Source: a virus
DNA: 41,122 bases
Direction: 5' to 3' (one strand)
IMG/VR virus record: IMGVR_UViG_3300017991_000195
Span: 1 to 41,122 of that record
Under the pieces are notes generated by a model, which was given only the letters and a program-made list of their open reading frames with translations, was not told where the DNA came from and did no database searches. Of the stretch, positions 25,123-40,905 are shown piece by piece. Each line of letters starts with the position of its first letter. Within the stretch, counting starts at the first letter, position 1. A program made the position numbers and the translations under genes.

Positions 25123-25230
25123 TCGTCCCCTCGGAAGCCGACGAGACGCCGAGTCGGGGGGGGGCGAAGGGGAGCGTTCCGGGGGGGCGTGATCCAGACG
25201 GTCGCCGAACGGCGGTTCCGGAGCCGAATT

Positions 25231-25266
25231 CGGCGCCGAATTTTTGAGCGATCGGGGCGCCGTTTT
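25231..25266 (+). terminator. terminator-like hairpin ending the virion operon
   Basis: CGGCGCC (25231-25237) pairs with GGCGCCG (25256-25262) across an 18-base loop, followed by TTTT (25263-25266). The loop holds the dispersed TTTTTGAGCG element. A GC stem followed by a T-run, just before a promoter candidate, fits a rho-independent terminator, though the T-run is short. Confidence 0.5.
25232..25254 (+). repeat. dispersed non-coding element, copy 2
   Basis: GGCGCCGAATTTTTGAGCG followed by ATCG matches copy 1 at 118-143 with one mismatch in 19 bases. It lies directly upstream of the promoter candidate, hence a possible operator or initiator site. Confidence 0.6.
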
Positions 25267-25269
25267 CGC

Positions 25270-25300
25270 TTGACACGACCCCCTTGAACGGCGGCAAAAT
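25270..25300 (+). promoter_or_regulatory. promoter candidate for second operon
   Basis: TTGACA at 25270-25275 is a perfect sigma70 -35 hexamer; CAAAAT at 25295-25300 is a fair -10 after 19 bases, slightly longer than the usual 17. It is the clearest promoter-like sequence noticed in the window and lies right after a terminator-like hairpin and before the first non-structural gene. This would be an early promoter read by host polymerase. Confidence 0.5.
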
Positions 25301-25417
25301 ATGAACATGCTCAAGCTCACGATACAAACAACGACCGACCGACGGAAGGGAGGCGACGCCGACAACTCTCTCAGAGATCCCGAGACGACGATGAACCCGA
25401 ACGACAAGGAGACGACG

Positions 25418-25801
25418 ATGAACACAACGACGACGATGAACCGTTCAATCTTCGCAGGAAGAATCAAGCCGACGAACAAGTTCCGAAGAGAAGAGATCAT
25501 TCGACAAGCGCGGAACATAGACGAGCTTCACCTCGCGCTCCCTCGCGCTCACACGAGAGGCGCGATCGACTCATGGCAACGCGAGAAGATCTCGGAGTCG
25601 CTCGACGAGGCGAAGAGAATTCTCGCGGCCGCGCTTCTTTACCTTGAGATGAACCCGAAGAGTGGTCTTCGTCCGACGCTCGTCGACGGAAGGATCCGCG
25701 ACGCGAGAGCGTTGATCGGAATCGCGTGGCCACAAATCCGAAGAGGTTCCGACTTGACGATCGACGAGAACGGATTGATCGTCGACCGCGACGAGGTGTA
25801 G
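25418..25801 (+). CDS. hypothetical helical protein, first gene of second operon
   Basis: I start this 127-residue protein at ATG 25418, six bases after AAGGAG. In-frame ATGs at 25301, 25391 and 25436 are alternatives; the longest would begin almost at the -10 element. The body is helical (IDSWQREKISESLDEAKRIL) with an acidic end. No domain recognised. First place after the promoter suggests an early, perhaps host-directed function; that is inference. Confidence 0.6.
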   Translation: MNTTTTMNRSIFAGRIKPTNKFRREEIIRQARNIDELHLALPRAHTRGAIDSWQREKISESLDEAKRILAAALLYLEMNPKSGLRPTLVDGRIRDARALIGIAWPQIRRGSDLTIDENGLIVDRDEV

Positions 25802-25805
25802 ACCG

Positions 25806-26204
25806 ATGAACGAGACGACGAACTCGAACACGGAAAGAGAGACGACGATGAACACGACGAAGACGAACCGCATTCCCACGACGAAGACGACACGCCGCGC
25901 GAGCTTCGGCAGAACTCGGAAGGCCTTCCCGAAGACGGTGAGCGGACGAAGCGTCGTTCCGATGGACGACGGCGACGCCGAGATCTTGATCACGAACCTC
26001 GACCGGATCTCCGACCTCGCGAGAGACCTCGCTTCCGCAATGAGAGAGAGTCGCTTCCGCGAGGATCACGTCGAGGACTATCTCGAAGGACTCGACGCCG
26101 ACAAGGTCGTCGCGTGGCTCGAAAGAGTCGCGAGCGACGGACGCTTCGTGAAGGCGGTCTTCGAGGACCGAGCGCGGGACGCGTGGCGAGACCCCGTCAA
26201 CTAG
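25806..26204 (+). CDS. hypothetical early protein (132 aa)
   Basis: The 132-residue product has a Thr/Arg/Lys-rich, probably disordered start and a helical second half (LITNLDRISDLARDLASAMR; VVAWLERVASDGRFVKAVFE). An internal ATG at 25848 also carries the GAGACGACG start sequence, so a 118-residue form is possible. The basic start could contact nucleic acid. No family recognised. Confidence 0.6.
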   Translation: MNETTNSNTERETTMNTTKTNRIPTTKTTRRASFGRTRKAFPKTVSGRSVVPMDDGDAEILITNLDRISDLARDLASAMRESRFREDHVEDYLEGLDADKVVAWLERVASDGRFVKAVFEDRARDAWRDPVN

Positions 26205-26222
26205 GGAAGGGGAGAGACGACG

Positions 26223-26465
26223 ATGAGGAACACGCTTCACCGAATTCGAGTCGGCGGGACGATGAGGACGGGACGGGGGAAGAGGAAGTCGGTCGTCCTC
26301 GTGAACGCGAAGAGGATCCCCTTCCTCTCCGGCGAGTGCTACGTCGGAGAAGAGTACGGACACCGGTTCTCGGTTCATGTGGTCGACGTTGCTCTCGTGA
26401 AGAGAGTCGAAGAACTCGACGTGATCCGAGGCGAACTCAAGACGGTCGGAACCGTCCAACTGTAG
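26223..26465 (+). CDS. small basic protein (80 aa)
   Basis: The 80-residue product looks like a compact beta barrel (HRIRVGGTMRTGRGKRKSVV, then FSVHVVDVALVKRVEELDVI). ATG 26223 follows GGGGAGAGACGACG, the start sequence shared by this operon. SH3- or OB-like small barrels can bind nucleic acid or host proteins, but no family is recognised. Confidence 0.6.
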   Translation: MRNTLHRIRVGGTMRTGRGKRKSVVLVNAKRIPFLSGECYVGEEYGHRFSVHVVDVALVKRVEELDVIRGELKTVGTVQL

Positions 26466-26479
26466 AGGGAGAGACGACG

Positions 26480-26869
26480 ATGAAACAACCGACAATGAAG
26501 CACGACCCGAACACGATCCGACGCGGACTCGAAACTCTTCAACGCCGAGTCGACCGAGCGCTTCTCATGATCGAGGAGAAGGACACGTTCGCGAACGCGT
26601 CTTCTCGACGCGAGGCGATCTCCGTGAACCAGTGGGACTGGGATCGACTCCGCAAGATCGACGAGCTTCTCGAAGAGGCCGCGACGGAGGTTCACCGACT
26701 CACGACTCGACGGTTCATGATCAAGCGCGGGATCGACGAACCTCGCGACGAGATCGAGAAGCAACTCGCGAAGGCGCTCGAAGAAGAGGAACTCCGAAGG
26801 ACCTTCCGACCGGCGGTCGTCGACTTTGTCGAGGCGCTCGCCATGGGCGGAACCACGAACCTCGCTTGA
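26480..26869 (+). CDS. hypothetical helical protein (129 aa)
   Basis: The start is ATG 26480 behind GGGAGAGACGACG. The 129-residue product is mostly helical with coiled-coil character (TIRRGLETLQRRVDRALLMI; RLRKIDELLEEAATEVHRLT). No motif recognised. It is followed by a 121-base gap containing two strong alternative hairpins. Confidence 0.6.
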   Translation: MKQPTMKHDPNTIRRGLETLQRRVDRALLMIEEKDTFANASSRREAISVNQWDWDRLRKIDELLEEAATEVHRLTTRRFMIKRGIDEPRDEIEKQLAKALEEEELRRTFRPAVVDFVEALAMGGTTNLA

Positions 26870-26911
26870 AGGGAACGAAGCGTGAAGACGACGACACGCT
26901 CTCAGATCAAC

Positions 26912-26977
26912 GACGACCGACTCCTCGCGGTTTATTCATCGTCGTCTCACCGCGAGTCGAGTCGGTCGTCTTCCTTT
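26912..26977 (+). terminator. 20-bp stem-loop followed by T-rich tract
   Basis: GACGACCGACTC plus CTCGCGGT (26912-26931) pairs with ACCGCGAG (26949-26956) and GAGTCGGTCGTC (26959-26970): twenty base pairs with a two-base bulge and a 17-base loop. TTCCTTT follows. It may be an intrinsic terminator or attenuator. Its last six stem bases are also needed by the next hairpin, so the two cannot form together. Confidence 0.65.
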
Positions 26978-26989
26978 GAAGGAGACGAC
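26965..26989 (+). promoter_or_regulatory. hairpin covering a Shine-Dalgarno sequence
   Basis: GTCGTCT (26965-26971) pairs with AGACGAC (26983-26989) and CCT pairs with AGG, with one bulged T and a TTGA loop. The stem buries AAGGAG (26979-26984), the ribosome site of the gene at 26991. Since 26965-26970 also closes the preceding stem-loop, the leader can adopt an open or closed form. Confidence 0.55.
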
Positions 26990-26990
26990 C

Positions 26991-27182
26991 ATGAACGCGA
27001 AGCAACGACGGACACTCGAAGAGGCGAGAAGCGTGATCGAAGAGATCGCGAGCGAAGAGAGGGACAAGAGGGAGAACGCGCCGGAGAACCTCTACGACTC
27101 CGAGCGATACGAGAACATGGAAGCGAGCGCGGACCTTCTCGACGAAGCCGTCCAGAATATCGAAGAGGCGCTCGAATACTAG
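26991..27182 (+). CDS. small acidic helical phage protein (63 aa)
   Basis: The 63-residue product matches, in pattern, a small protein common in diverse phages: a helix with EEARSVIEEIASEE, then ENLYDSERYENMEASADLLD and a closing EAVQNIEEALE. Such proteins are acidic helical hairpins of unknown function. I start at ATG 26991 with AAGGAG seven bases upstream; a TTG at 26976 would only translate the ribosome site. The start lies immediately behind the sequestering hairpin, so its translation may be regulated. Confidence 0.75.
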   Translation: MNAKQRRTLEEARSVIEEIASEERDKRENAPENLYDSERYENMEASADLLDEAVQNIEEALEY

Positions 27183-27215
27183 GACCCCCGAGGACCACAA
27201 CGAACGGAGACGACG

Positions 27216-27605
27216 ATGAACGAAGACACGACCGCAACCGAGACGACGAACACTTGCTCCCCGTATCGGGACCTCCCTCCCGAGACGACGACCGTGAACT
27301 CGTGGGCGACCTTCTGGGTCGAGCGAATTCGGAACATGATCCGAACCGTTCACGTCTACACGATGAGCGAACCGAACCTTCTCCGATCCGACCTCGACTT
27401 CCTCGACGTGCTTCGAGTCTTCGAGAGAACGATCCGCTCTCACTGGATCGAGTATCTCCAGGACCCGAGCGAGTTGAGACTCTCGATCCTTCTCGGACGG
27501 ATCGACGACGGACTCGAAGAACTACGACCTCAACTCGAACGGAAGCTCGTCGGACTCGGGTCGAATTATCAAGTCTACGAGGACCGAGACACGATCTACT
27601 ATTGA
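27216..27605 (+). CDS. hypothetical protein (129 aa)
   Basis: The 129-residue product begins with a Thr-rich disordered stretch, then helices with many aromatics (NSWATFWVERIRNMIRTVHV; RVFERTIRSHWIEYL). The ribosome site is GGAGACGACG before ATG 27216. No family recognised. A double hairpin follows its stop. Confidence 0.6.
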   Translation: MNEDTTATETTNTCSPYRDLPPETTTVNSWATFWVERIRNMIRTVHVYTMSEPNLLRSDLDFLDVLRVFERTIRSHWIEYLQDPSELRLSILLGRIDDGLEELRPQLERKLVGLGSNYQVYEDRDTIYY

Positions 27606-27645: not shown

Positions 27646-27698
27646 CGGGGCGAGCGTCGCGAGCTTGAGCAACTTCGACGCTCGCCCCGTCTCTTCTC
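27646..27698 (+). terminator. 14-bp perfect stem-loop with pyrimidine tail
   Basis: CGGGGCGAGCGTCG (27646-27659) pairs exactly with CGACGCTCGCCCCG (27676-27689) with a 16-base loop; TCTCTTCTC follows. This is the longest unbroken perfect stem seen in the window. It is a strong terminator candidate between two gene groups, although the tail is a T/C mix. Confidence 0.65.
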
Positions 27699-36874: not shown

Positions 36875-37807
36875 GTGGGAAGAGTGAAGATCATTCAAGG
36901 GAACGCGCTCGAAGCGCTTCGAGGTCTCGAAGACGAGTCCGTTCATTGCGTCGTAACGTCTCCCCCATACTGGGGACTCAGGGACTATCACGTCGAAGGA
37001 CAACTCGGACTCGAACCGACTCCGTCGAAGTATGTCGCGAGTCTCGTCGCGGTCTTCGAGGAAGTCCGTCGAGTCCTTCGGGGGGACGGGACTCTATGGC
37101 TCAATCTCGGCGACTCATACGCGTCGAAGCCGACGGGGTCGAGACCGGGTCCGACTCTCAATCGGAGGAACGACACGGAGGAAGGACCCACGGGGCGACC
37201 GAACAAGATCGTCGAAGGCCTCAAGCCGAAGGACCTCGTCGGGATCCCGTGGCTCGTCGCGTTCGCCATGAGGGGCGCGGGATGGTATCTCCGGCAAGAC
37301 GTGATATGGCACAAGCCGAACACGCTCCCCGAGGTCGTGAAGGACCGACCCGTGAGCGCTCACGAACACGTCTTCCTCTTCGCGAAGTCGGAGCGATACT
37401 TCTTCGACGAGGACGCGATCAAGGTGAGAGTCAAGCGGACCCCGAGGAAGGTCGGACACGACGGAGGGATGAACGACACGGGATGGAACTCGAAGCAAGC
37501 GGGAAGCTTCGGCGCCCCCACGGGGACGAGGAAGTCGCGGTCGGTCTGGACGATCCCGACCCATTGCGTTCGAGGCGCTCACTTCGCGACCTTCCCGAGG
37601 AGACTCGTCGAGCCGTGCGTGAAGGCGGGGAGTCCGGCGGACGGGGTCGTTCTCGATCCGTTCATGGGGTCGGGGACGACTGGGATCGTCGCGCTCTCCC
37701 TCGGAAGGCGCTTCGTCGGGGTCGAACTCAATCCGGAATACGTCGAACTCGCGAGGACGCGGATCGCGAGCGAGACGAAGTTCACGAGAAGGGAGGCGAC
37801 AAGGTGA
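36875..37807 (+). CDS. DNA methyltransferase, beta class
   Basis: The 310-residue enzyme carries the catalytic motif TSPPYW (28-33, within PPYWGLRDY) before the AdoMet-binding DPFMGSGTT (261-269). That motif order defines the beta class of amino-methyltransferases, which methylate adenine N6 or cytosine N4; the sequence does not decide which. Other family parts are VRRVLRGDGTLWLNLGDSYA and GWYLRQDVIWHKPN. No restriction enzyme gene is adjacent, so it is probably a solitary enzyme protecting phage DNA. Start is GTG 36875. It overlaps the ParB-like gene. Confidence 0.9.
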   Translation: MGRVKIIQGNALEALRGLEDESVHCVVTSPPYWGLRDYHVEGQLGLEPTPSKYVASLVAVFEEVRRVLRGDGTLWLNLGDSYASKPTGSRPGPTLNRRNDTEEGPTGRPNKIVEGLKPKDLVGIPWLVAFAMRGAGWYLRQDVIWHKPNTLPEVVKDRPVSAHEHVFLFAKSERYFFDEDAIKVRVKRTPRKVGHDGGMNDTGWNSKQAGSFGAPTGTRKSRSVWTIPTHCVRGAHFATFPRRLVEPCVKAGSPADGVVLDPFMGSGTTGIVALSLGRRFVGVELNPEYVELARTRIASETKFTRREATR

Positions 37808-38463
37808 AGAGGTGGATCGCGAAGCGAGTGAAGATCGAGGCGCTCGTCCTCGACGAGAGGAACCCGAGAACGATCTCCGAAGAGAGAGCGGTCGCGCTCA
37901 CGAGGTCGATCGACCGGTTCGGACTCGTTCAACCGATCGTCGTGAACGGACCGACGGGGAGAGTCGTCGGGGGGCATCAAAGGATAGAAGCTCTCCGGCG
38001 CCTCGGGGAAGAAGAGGTCGACGTGATCGTCGTCGATCTCTCGGAGGTCGACGAGAAGGCCTTGAGCGTCGCGCTCAACTCGACCGAACTACAGGGAGCG
38101 TGGGACCCGTCCCTCTTGTCCGAGCGTCTCTCCGAGCTTGTCGAAGGCCTTGAGACGGACGAGTTCGAGGGACTGAGGTTCGACGCGCTCTCGATCGAAC
38201 TCGAAGGCCTCTTCGACGACTTCCTCGGACTCGACGAGGGAGGGGAGGAAGAGGAAGGCCACGAGAGCGCCGAGGATCCACGGAGAACGACGCGAGTGAA
38301 GTTCGGGGACTTGGAACTCGACCTCGACTCGGAACTCGTGAGTCGCGTCGTGAGCGTCCTCGTCGGACGCTTCGAGGAAGAGGACGAGGACCCGTCGGAG
38401 GCGTTCGAAGAGATCGTCGAGGCGGGTCTCGCAATGTGGAAGCACGAAGGGAGGACCGAATGA
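37804..38463 (+). CDS. ParB-like nuclease-domain protein
   Basis: Residues 8-100 match the ParB/Sulfiredoxin-like domain: LDERNPRTISEERAVALTRS, FGLVQPIVVN, VVGGHQRIEALRRLG and VIVVDLSEVDEKALSVALNS. Phage versions are often paired with methyltransferases and may act as nucleases, nickases or specificity partners. The C-terminal half is acidic. Start is GTG 37804 inside the methyltransferase stop (GTGA). The stop overlaps the Gp157-like gene. Domain call is strong, role uncertain. Confidence 0.85.
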   Translation: MKRWIAKRVKIEALVLDERNPRTISEERAVALTRSIDRFGLVQPIVVNGPTGRVVGGHQRIEALRRLGEEEVDVIVVDLSEVDEKALSVALNSTELQGAWDPSLLSERLSELVEGLETDEFEGLRFDALSIELEGLFDDFLGLDEGGEEEEGHESAEDPRRTTRVKFGDLELDLDSELVSRVVSVLVGRFEEEDEDPSEAFEEIVEAGLAMWKHEGRTE

Positions 38464-38948: not shown

Positions 38949-38961
38949 AAGGGAGACGACG

Positions 38962-39237
38962 ATGAGGAAGTTCCGAAGGAAGGTTCCGACCCGACGCAAT
39001 AAGCACACGTTCCCGGACGGGACTCGCGACCGATACGAACGACTCGCGATCGAGGCGAGGAAGGTCGGTCTTCCTCTTCTCAAGATTCGAGCGAAGAGAG
39101 CGTCGACGCGCCTCGGACGCTTGAGAGCGATCGGGAAGGATCGGATCGAGATCGACCGTGTCGCGGTTGCGAGAGTAGAACTCGCCGCGATCGACTTCGC
39201 GGTCGCCTTGCTTGAGGCGATGGGAGAGGTCGAATGA
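38962..39237 (+). CDS. small basic protein (91 aa)
   Basis: The 91-residue product is strongly basic (MRKFRRKVPTRRNKHTFPDG) with a helical C-terminal half (ELAAIDFAVALLEAMGEVE). The ribosome site GGGAGACGACG precedes ATG 38962. The charge suggests nucleic-acid binding. No family recognised. Confidence 0.6.
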   Translation: MRKFRRKVPTRRNKHTFPDGTRDRYERLAIEARKVGLPLLKIRAKRASTRLGRLRAIGKDRIEIDRVAVARVELAAIDFAVALLEAMGEVE

Positions 39238-39434
39238 GCGATCCCGACTACAGGAACACGGACGAGGGAATGAGGCGCGAACCGACGCAAGCCGACGAAG
39301 CTCTCACGCTCGTCGGAATGATCTCCGCGATCTTCGGGGGAATGCTTCTCTTCGCGTTCCTCGGTTGGATCTCGGACCTCTACGACGAGCGGAAGGCGAA
39401 GAGAAAGGGAGGCGACGATGAGACGGACCTATAA
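39234..39434 (+). CDS. small single-pass membrane protein (66 aa)
   Basis: The 66-residue product has one membrane helix (residues about 24-46, ALTLVGMISAIFGGMLLFAF) between a polar N-terminus and a Lys/Arg-rich C-terminus. A single helix with a basic tail fits a small holin, pinholin or other membrane effector. It overlaps the previous gene by ATGA and the next by 17 bases. A holin role is inference. Confidence 0.6.
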   Translation: MSDPDYRNTDEGMRREPTQADEALTLVGMISAIFGGMLLFAFLGWISDLYDERKAKRKGGDDETDL

Positions 39435-40726: not shown

Positions 40727-40783
40727 GCTCCCTTCCTCCCGGATACGTCTCTCCCCTCTCCGGAGACCGAGAGGCGGGGAGGC

Positions 40784-40817
40784 GGGATCTCTCCCCCTAC
40801 GGGGGGAGAGAGATCCC
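40784..40817 (+). terminator. GC-rich near-perfect hairpin
   Basis: GGGATCTCTCCCCC (40784-40797) pairs with GGGGGGAGAGAGATCCC (40801-40817) with one bulge and a tiny loop. It lies downstream of the last gene, so it may end right-arm transcription, but no clear T-run follows. Confidence 0.5.
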
Positions 40818-40905
40818 GACCTTCCTTCGACCTACTACGGAACGAGTCTCGACCATATCTTGTGGTATGGGGTGGGGGTGCGGCAATATCACCCCCGGGG
40901 TCTAC

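What the first reader, a model, noticed from the sequence alone, without database searches (positions are those of the whole stretch)
26912..26995. Mutually exclusive RNA hairpins, one hiding a ribosome-binding site
A 20-base-pair stem (26912-26931 with 26949-26970) and a second hairpin (26965-26971 with 26983-26989) compete for bases 26965-26970. The second buries AAGGAG of the gene at 26991. The leader therefore looks like a two-state switch controlling an acidic helical phage protein: first stem formed means an exposed ribosome site, second stem formed means a closed one. The first stem is also followed by TTCCTTT, so it could instead act as an attenuator.
Basis: partly seen in the sequence, partly recalled or inferred. 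Interest (0 to 1): 0.75.

Follow-up and report, generated by a model that had tools for sequence, protein, structure and literature searches.

The report
Phage hairpin complementary to its start sites
A small phage RNA hairpin carries in its open loop the exact complement of the ribosome-landing box repeated in front of a set of the phage's own genes, which suggests one RNA loop that turns down a whole gene set; the same layout occurs in well-studied mycobacterium phages, where the role of such boxes has been open since 2011.

Summary
The 20-bp stem is in the top 0.15% of windows for stability; the second hairpin can bury the ribosome site of gene 26991. They are not a balanced switch: only the bottom ~7 bp compete, stem 1 holds ~99% of the ensemble, and the ribosome site is mostly paired in both states.

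The 17-nt loop contains the exact 14-nt reverse complement of GAGACGACGATGAA, a box spanning ribosome site and start codon that recurs at starts of the same operon (5 exact copies, 2 with one mismatch) and at two starts near 39 kb. It is the only exact reverse copy (expected 0.0006-0.002). None of 38 control contigs has this layout. Mycobacteriophage Adephagia does: its reverse-orientation Start-Associated Sequence, left unexplained in 2011, sits in a hairpin loop that most sampled relatives keep, with modest stem covariation.

Best reading: an antisense hairpin blocking translation of the boxed genes, like P1 c4 RNA but aimed at a repeated box. Expression, processing and repression are unshown; no relative of this operon was found, so conservation of the window's own element is untested.

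The parts
26912..26970 (+). Stable hairpin (stem 1): 20 bp, 2-nt bulge, 17-nt loop
   Evidence: -34.8 kcal/mol; top 0.15% of 59-nt windows
26935..26948 (+). Anti-box: exact reverse complement of start box GAGACGACGATGAA, inside the unpaired loop 26932-26948
   Evidence: only exact reverse copy in the record; Markov expectation 0.0006-0.002; mostly unpaired in the ensemble
26964..26990 (+). Hairpin 2: alternative pairing of the 3' base of stem 1 with the ribosome site of gene 26991
   Evidence: -17.3 kcal/mol alone; about 1% of ensemble
26971..26984 (+). Small 5-bp hairpin covering AGGAG when stem 1 is formed
   Evidence: pair probabilities 0.72-0.85
26880..26899 (+). Possible decoy: small upstream hairpin whose loop holds AGACGACGA, complementary to 9 nt of the anti-box loop (speculative)
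   Evidence: fold and duplex of -14.7 kcal/mol; GAC-rich sequence makes chance likely
26991..27182 (+). Gene directly downstream: 63-aa acidic helical protein, phrog_4068, unknown function
   Evidence: E 1.2e-10
26982..26995 (+). Start box of gene 26991, one mismatch (C before ATG), the base that pairs in hairpin 2
   Evidence: duplex with loop -18.8 kcal/mol
25382..25395 (+). Exact start box, start 25391
   Evidence: duplex -24.9
25409..25422 (+). Exact start box, start 25418 (in frame with 25391)
   Evidence: duplex -24.8
25839..25852 (+). Exact start box, start 25848
   Evidence: duplex -24.9
26214..26227 (+). Start box with one mismatch, start 26223
   Evidence: duplex -24.6
26471..26484 (+). 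Exact start box, start 26480; longest match to loop plus closing pairs (21 of 24 nt)
   Evidence: duplex -25.1
27207..27220 (+). Exact start box, start 27216
   Evidence: duplex -24.8
38953..38966 (+). Start box with one mismatch, start 38962, outside the operon
   Evidence: duplex -24.5
39409..39422 (+). Start box with two mismatches, start 39418, outside the operon
   Evidence: duplex -23.7

Best explanation
The 121-nt gap between genes 26480-26869 and 26991-27182 encodes a stable RNA hairpin that displays an antisense loop. The loop can form about 14 continuous base pairs with the box that spans the ribosome site, spacer and start codon of the phage's boxed genes, and so should block ribosome entry there, either within the same polycistronic RNA or on other transcripts (starts near 39 kb), as part of the mRNA or as a cleaved small RNA. 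The base of the hairpin probably also restrains its own downstream gene, whose box differs at one base that pairs with the 3' arm of the stem. Shown: hairpin, exact complementarity, box set, rarity of the layout, and the same layout in cluster K mycobacteriophages. Inferred: transcription of the element, loop-box pairing in the cell, repression, release as a small RNA.
For: Exact 14-nt reverse copy of the box in an unpaired loop; expected 0.0006-0.002 per genome, and only 0.03% of 14-mers lie in a loop with a stem of 8 bp or more. Loop pairs with boxed starts at -23.7 to -25.1 kcal/mol against background -11.2 (sd 2.7) and -9.1 for shuffled loops. Gap is non-coding in all six frames. Survey of 44 sequences: only the window, Adephagia and one chance hit inside a Keshu gene; 0 of 38 control contigs. 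Adephagia's reverse Start-Associated Sequence lies in a hairpin loop kept in 9 of 15 sampled phages and nearly so in 3 more, stem 98.7% paired with two two-sided changes. Loop pairing that blocks a ribosome site is established for NfeR1 (PMC10746234) and reported for P1/P7 c4 RNA (PMC12197685).
Against: No expression data. No relative of this operon, so loop-box co-variation is untested. The pattern was noticed after the fact and the genome is rich in GAC repeats. AnnaSerena, with start-associated repeats, has no anti-box hairpin; Keshu, Hurricane and SirPhilip have boxes but lack the loop. No promoter or clear terminator for a separate small RNA was found.
Confidence: 0.5

Rival explanations
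1. Two-state leader for gene 26991 alone: exchange between stem 1 and hairpin 2 opens or closes its ribosome site in response to a protein, RNA or condition.
For: Both pairings exist and share 26965-26970; 26912-26918 repeats the GACGACC just before the start codon (sequence); only 3.6 kcal/mol apart.
Against: About 1% occupancy of the closed state and a ribosome site mostly paired in both states; no comparable leader in three distant homologues; does not explain the exact anti-box loop.
Confidence: 0.15
2. Coincidence of sequence bias: a GAC-rich genome makes boxes and their complements often, and this hairpin happens to hold one.
For: At up to 3 mismatches the box has 37 matches against about 22 expected; GAC repeats are everywhere.
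Against: Exact reverse copy expected 0.0006-0.002 times under Markov orders 1-5; position in a loop adds a factor of about 0.0003; 0 of 38 control contigs; independent case in Adephagia.
Confidence: 0.12
3. Relic or live gene start on the minus strand: an inverted copy of the start of gene 26480, with a 10-residue reading frame.
For: 21 of 24 positions match the start of gene 26480 in inverted orientation.
Against: The similarity ends with loop and closing pairs; minus-strand frames score as non-coding; the minus-strand box lacks the usual GGAG; no minus-strand promoter nearby.
Confidence: 0.1
4. Transcription attenuator or RNase III processing site that sets the level of the distal operon genes.
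For: A 20-bp stem in the largest gap of the operon, followed by CTTCCTTT.
Against: Tail poor in T, 17-nt loop, not listed by the terminator scan; does not explain the antisense loop. Processing is compatible with the best explanation.
Confidence: 0.1

Closest known systems
c4 antisense RNA of phages P1 and P7
   Same: Phage antisense RNA whose complementary stretches are thought to lie in loops and which binds the target mRNA around the ribosome site (PMC12197685); from general knowledge it is transcribed on the same strand and from the same promoter as its target.
   Different: c4 acts on one operon (ant); here the loop matches a box repeated at about nine starts, most of them upstream of the hairpin. 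No Rfam family matches the window.
Start-Associated Sequences (SAS) of cluster K mycobacteriophages and cluster EF Microbacterium phages
   Same: A long conserved box at the ribosome site of a subset of genes (PMC3203893, PMC7302621); in Adephagia the one reverse copy lies in a hairpin loop.
   Different: Sequences are unrelated (GGGATAGGAGCCC, GGGAAAGGACCCC, GAGACGACGATGAA); the window box includes the start codon. No anti-box in AnnaSerena.
Alpha-proteobacterial anti-Shine-Dalgarno sRNAs (NfeR1 / alpha-r14, 'cuckoo' RNAs)
   Same: Hairpin loops that pair with ribosome sites of many mRNAs and block translation (PMC10746234).
   Different: Their loops carry CCUCCUCCC against general ribosome sites; the window loop is specific to a phage box and barely touches the GGAG core. 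They are host genes.

Membership tests
c4-type phage antisense RNA | Loop complementary to the ribosome site of a phage mRNA | tested here: met
   Exact 14-nt complement of boxes spanning ribosome site and start codon
c4-type phage antisense RNA | Encoded upstream of its target on the same strand | tested here: inconclusive
   Same strand, but the exact-box targets lie mostly upstream of the hairpin; only 27216 and the one-mismatch own gene 26991 lie just downstream
c4-type phage antisense RNA | Match to a curated RNA family model | tested here: not met
   No Rfam match at gathering and nothing credible at E up to 10
c4-type phage antisense RNA | Accumulates as a small RNA and represses its target | not testable with these tools
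   No expression data for this contig
SAS start-box system | Box conserved beyond the Shine-Dalgarno core at many starts of one genome | tested here: met
   Five exact 14-mers and four near copies at starts; 33 box-bearing contigs hold one or two copies
SAS start-box system | SAS sequence GGGATAGGAGCCC | tested here: not met
   Window box is GAGACGACGATGAA
Anti-Shine-Dalgarno (NfeR1 / cuckoo) sRNA | CCUCCUCCC motif in hairpin loops | tested here: not met
   Loop is UUUAUUCAUCGUCGUCU(C); the Adephagia loop CCUCCUAUCC is closer
Two-state RNA switch | Two exclusive folds of comparable stability, one hiding the ribosome site | tested here: not met
   3.6 kcal/mol apart, about 1% occupancy, ribosome site paired in both
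Two-state RNA switch | Covariation of both structures across relatives | tested here: inconclusive
   No relatives of the region found

The most novel reading that the evidence does not exclude
Unrelated phages have independently evolved start-box regulons: a phage-specific box at the starts of a set of genes plus one hairpin RNA whose loop is the complement of that box and sets their translation together. The reverse-orientation Start-Associated Sequence of cluster K phages, unexplained since 2011, would be such an RNA.
Probability: 0.35. Interest if true: 0.82.

Novelty: new variant of a known kind. Interest (0 to 1): 0.62.

Why it matters
If right, one short loop controls a set of phage genes by pairing with a shared start box, a simple way to coordinate translation that can be predicted from sequence alone. 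It also gives a concrete, testable role to the reverse-orientation Start-Associated Sequence of cluster K mycobacteriophages, and bears on the Start-Associated Sequences themselves, whose role the papers read here call unknown (PMC3203893, PMC11373665).

Tried and rejected
Intrinsic terminator or attenuator: tail poor in T, long loop, not listed by the scan. Known RNA family: no credible Rfam match. Coding origin of the gap: rejected in six frames by codon score. Minus-strand gene start: not coding-like. Covariation in relatives of this phage: relatives were found only for the structural half; four non-structural or tail-end proteins gave no confirmed relatives in viral contigs, and the DUF932-like one none in genome contigs. 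These searches need exact 8-residue matches, so relatives may have been missed. A DNA pattern of loop plus stem gave none. The prediction that Microbacterium phage AnnaSerena, which has start-associated repeats, would carry an anti-box hairpin failed. SirPhilip, Keshu and Hurricane lack the cluster K loop although the locus is partly conserved. A Keshu survey hit lies inside a coding gene and is taken as chance. Upstream regions of three distant homologues of protein 26991 show nothing comparable.

Full report
CONTEXT. The window is the whole of a virus record of 41,122 bases, 60% G+C, with terminase, portal and major head genes at the left and a DUF932-like gene, a DnaB-like helicase and a DNA methylase at the right. 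The finding lies in a run of small forward genes from 25.3 to 27.7 kb. Gaps between these genes are short (4 to 33 nt) except the one holding the hairpin, which is 121 nt (26870-26990).

OBSERVATION. The 20-bp stem is exact at the stated coordinates and folds at -34.8 kcal/mol. The whole segment gives z = -2.7 against shuffles, and only 0.15% of 59-nt windows of this genome are as stable. The second hairpin is real and longer than described (26964-26990, -17.3 kcal/mol). But enforcing hairpin 2 leaves the upper 13 pairs and the loop of stem 1 intact, at -36.1 against -39.7 kcal/mol; hairpin 2 holds about 1% of the ensemble, and in the dominant state the bases AGGAG pair with 26971-26975. So this is not a balanced open/closed switch.

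THE LOOP. The repeat search showed that the hairpin's loop and closing pairs (26928-26951) match the reverse complement of the start region of gene 26480 (I7), at 21 of 24 positions. The core is an exact 14-mer, TTCATCGTCGTCTC, the reverse complement of GAGACGACGATGAA. That box occurs exactly five times on the forward strand, at starts 25391, 25418, 25848, 26480 and 27216, and with one mismatch at 26223 and at the hairpin's own gene 26991. Two further starts near 39 kb carry it with one and two mismatches. The loop holds the only exact reverse copy. Markov models of order 1 to 5 expect 0.0006-0.002 such copies in the window, and only 0.03% of 14-mers of the genome lie inside a hairpin loop with a stem of at least 8 bp. 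These figures were computed after the pattern was seen, so they are a guide rather than a test.

PAIRING STRENGTH. The loop pairs with the boxed starts at -23.7 to -25.1 kcal/mol. The next best, gene 26991's own start, reaches -18.8; the background is -11.2 with sd 2.7; shuffled loops average -9.1 against the boxed starts. The own start differs from the box at one base next to the start codon, and that base pairs with the 3' arm of the stem in hairpin 2. The gap is non-coding in all frames: codon scores -0.23 to -0.49, against 0.17 (sd 0.08) for true 120-nt coding pieces and -0.40 for off-frame reading.

CONTROLS. An automatic survey looked for 10-mers shared by at least four gene starts and for their reverse complement inside a hairpin loop. 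In 44 sequences (1.6 Mb) it found the window, Adephagia, and one hit inside a coding gene of Keshu; it found none in 18 contigs sharing the head protein and 20 other IMG/VR contigs. Thirty-three contigs that contain the box hold only one or two copies each at up to one mismatch.

AN INDEPENDENT CASE. Pope et al. 2011 (PMC3203893; [quoted passage not shown] In Adephagia that reverse copy forms the loop of a -33.7 kcal/mol hairpin between genes 92 and 93, on the strand of the genes. BLAST finds the region in 134 phage records. Of 15 sampled phages, nine keep the loop CCTCCTATCC, three (Ekdilam, DarthP, Hammy) have CCTCCTTCCC, and three (Keshu, Hurricane, SirPhilip) lack it. In 10 aligned hairpins the stem is 98.7% paired, with two pairs changed on both sides; sliding the partners drops pairing to 29-51%. 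This supports a conserved RNA hairpin, though the covariation is modest. The passages read in the 2024 Adephagia paper do not mention it. AnnaSerena, a Microbacterium phage with its own start-associated repeats, has no such hairpin, so the arrangement is not universal.

INTERPRETATION. The simplest account is an antisense hairpin that masks the ribosome site and start codon of the boxed genes. Blocking of ribosome sites by loop pairing is established for NfeR1 (PMC10746234) and reported for the P1/P7 c4 RNA (PMC12197685). What would be new is the target: a box repeated at many starts of one phage, so that a single loop addresses a gene set. The lower stem, shared with hairpin 2, may add control of gene 26991. 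Transcription, processing and repression are not shown. No relative of the non-structural region could be found, so the usual evolutionary test is missing for the window itself.

VERDICT. The hairpins are real; the proposed switch is weakly supported; the loop-box complementarity is strong and unusual, with an independent parallel. I put the antisense mechanism at 0.5 and the broader class at 0.35.

Noticed in passing
L087:31661-31713 (Adephagia JF704105.1, record about 58660-58712): The single reverse-orientation Start-Associated Sequence of Adephagia lies in the loop of a conserved hairpin between genes 92 and 93; unexplained in Pope 2011.
   Followed up: yes
window 25382-25440: Three in-frame start boxes in tandem (25382, 25409, and 25427 with two mismatches) at the first gene of the boxed operon.
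   Followed up: no
window 25226-25305: AT-rich palindrome with a T run (GAATTCGGCGCCGAATTTTT) followed by TTGACA: a terminator-like site and a weak promoter-like site that may separate the tail genes from the boxed operon.
   Followed up: partly
window 27646-27690: Very stable GC-rich hairpin (-32 kcal/mol) just after the last boxed gene of the operon, tail GTCTCTTCTC; possible end of the transcript.
   Followed up: partly
window 40741-40830: Among the strongest folds of the record on both strands (about -54 kcal/mol per 80 nt), near the right end.
   Followed up: no
window 36875-38463: A DNA N6/N4-type methylase gene (PF01555) followed by a reading frame that looks ParB-like by eye (not searched).
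   Followed up: no
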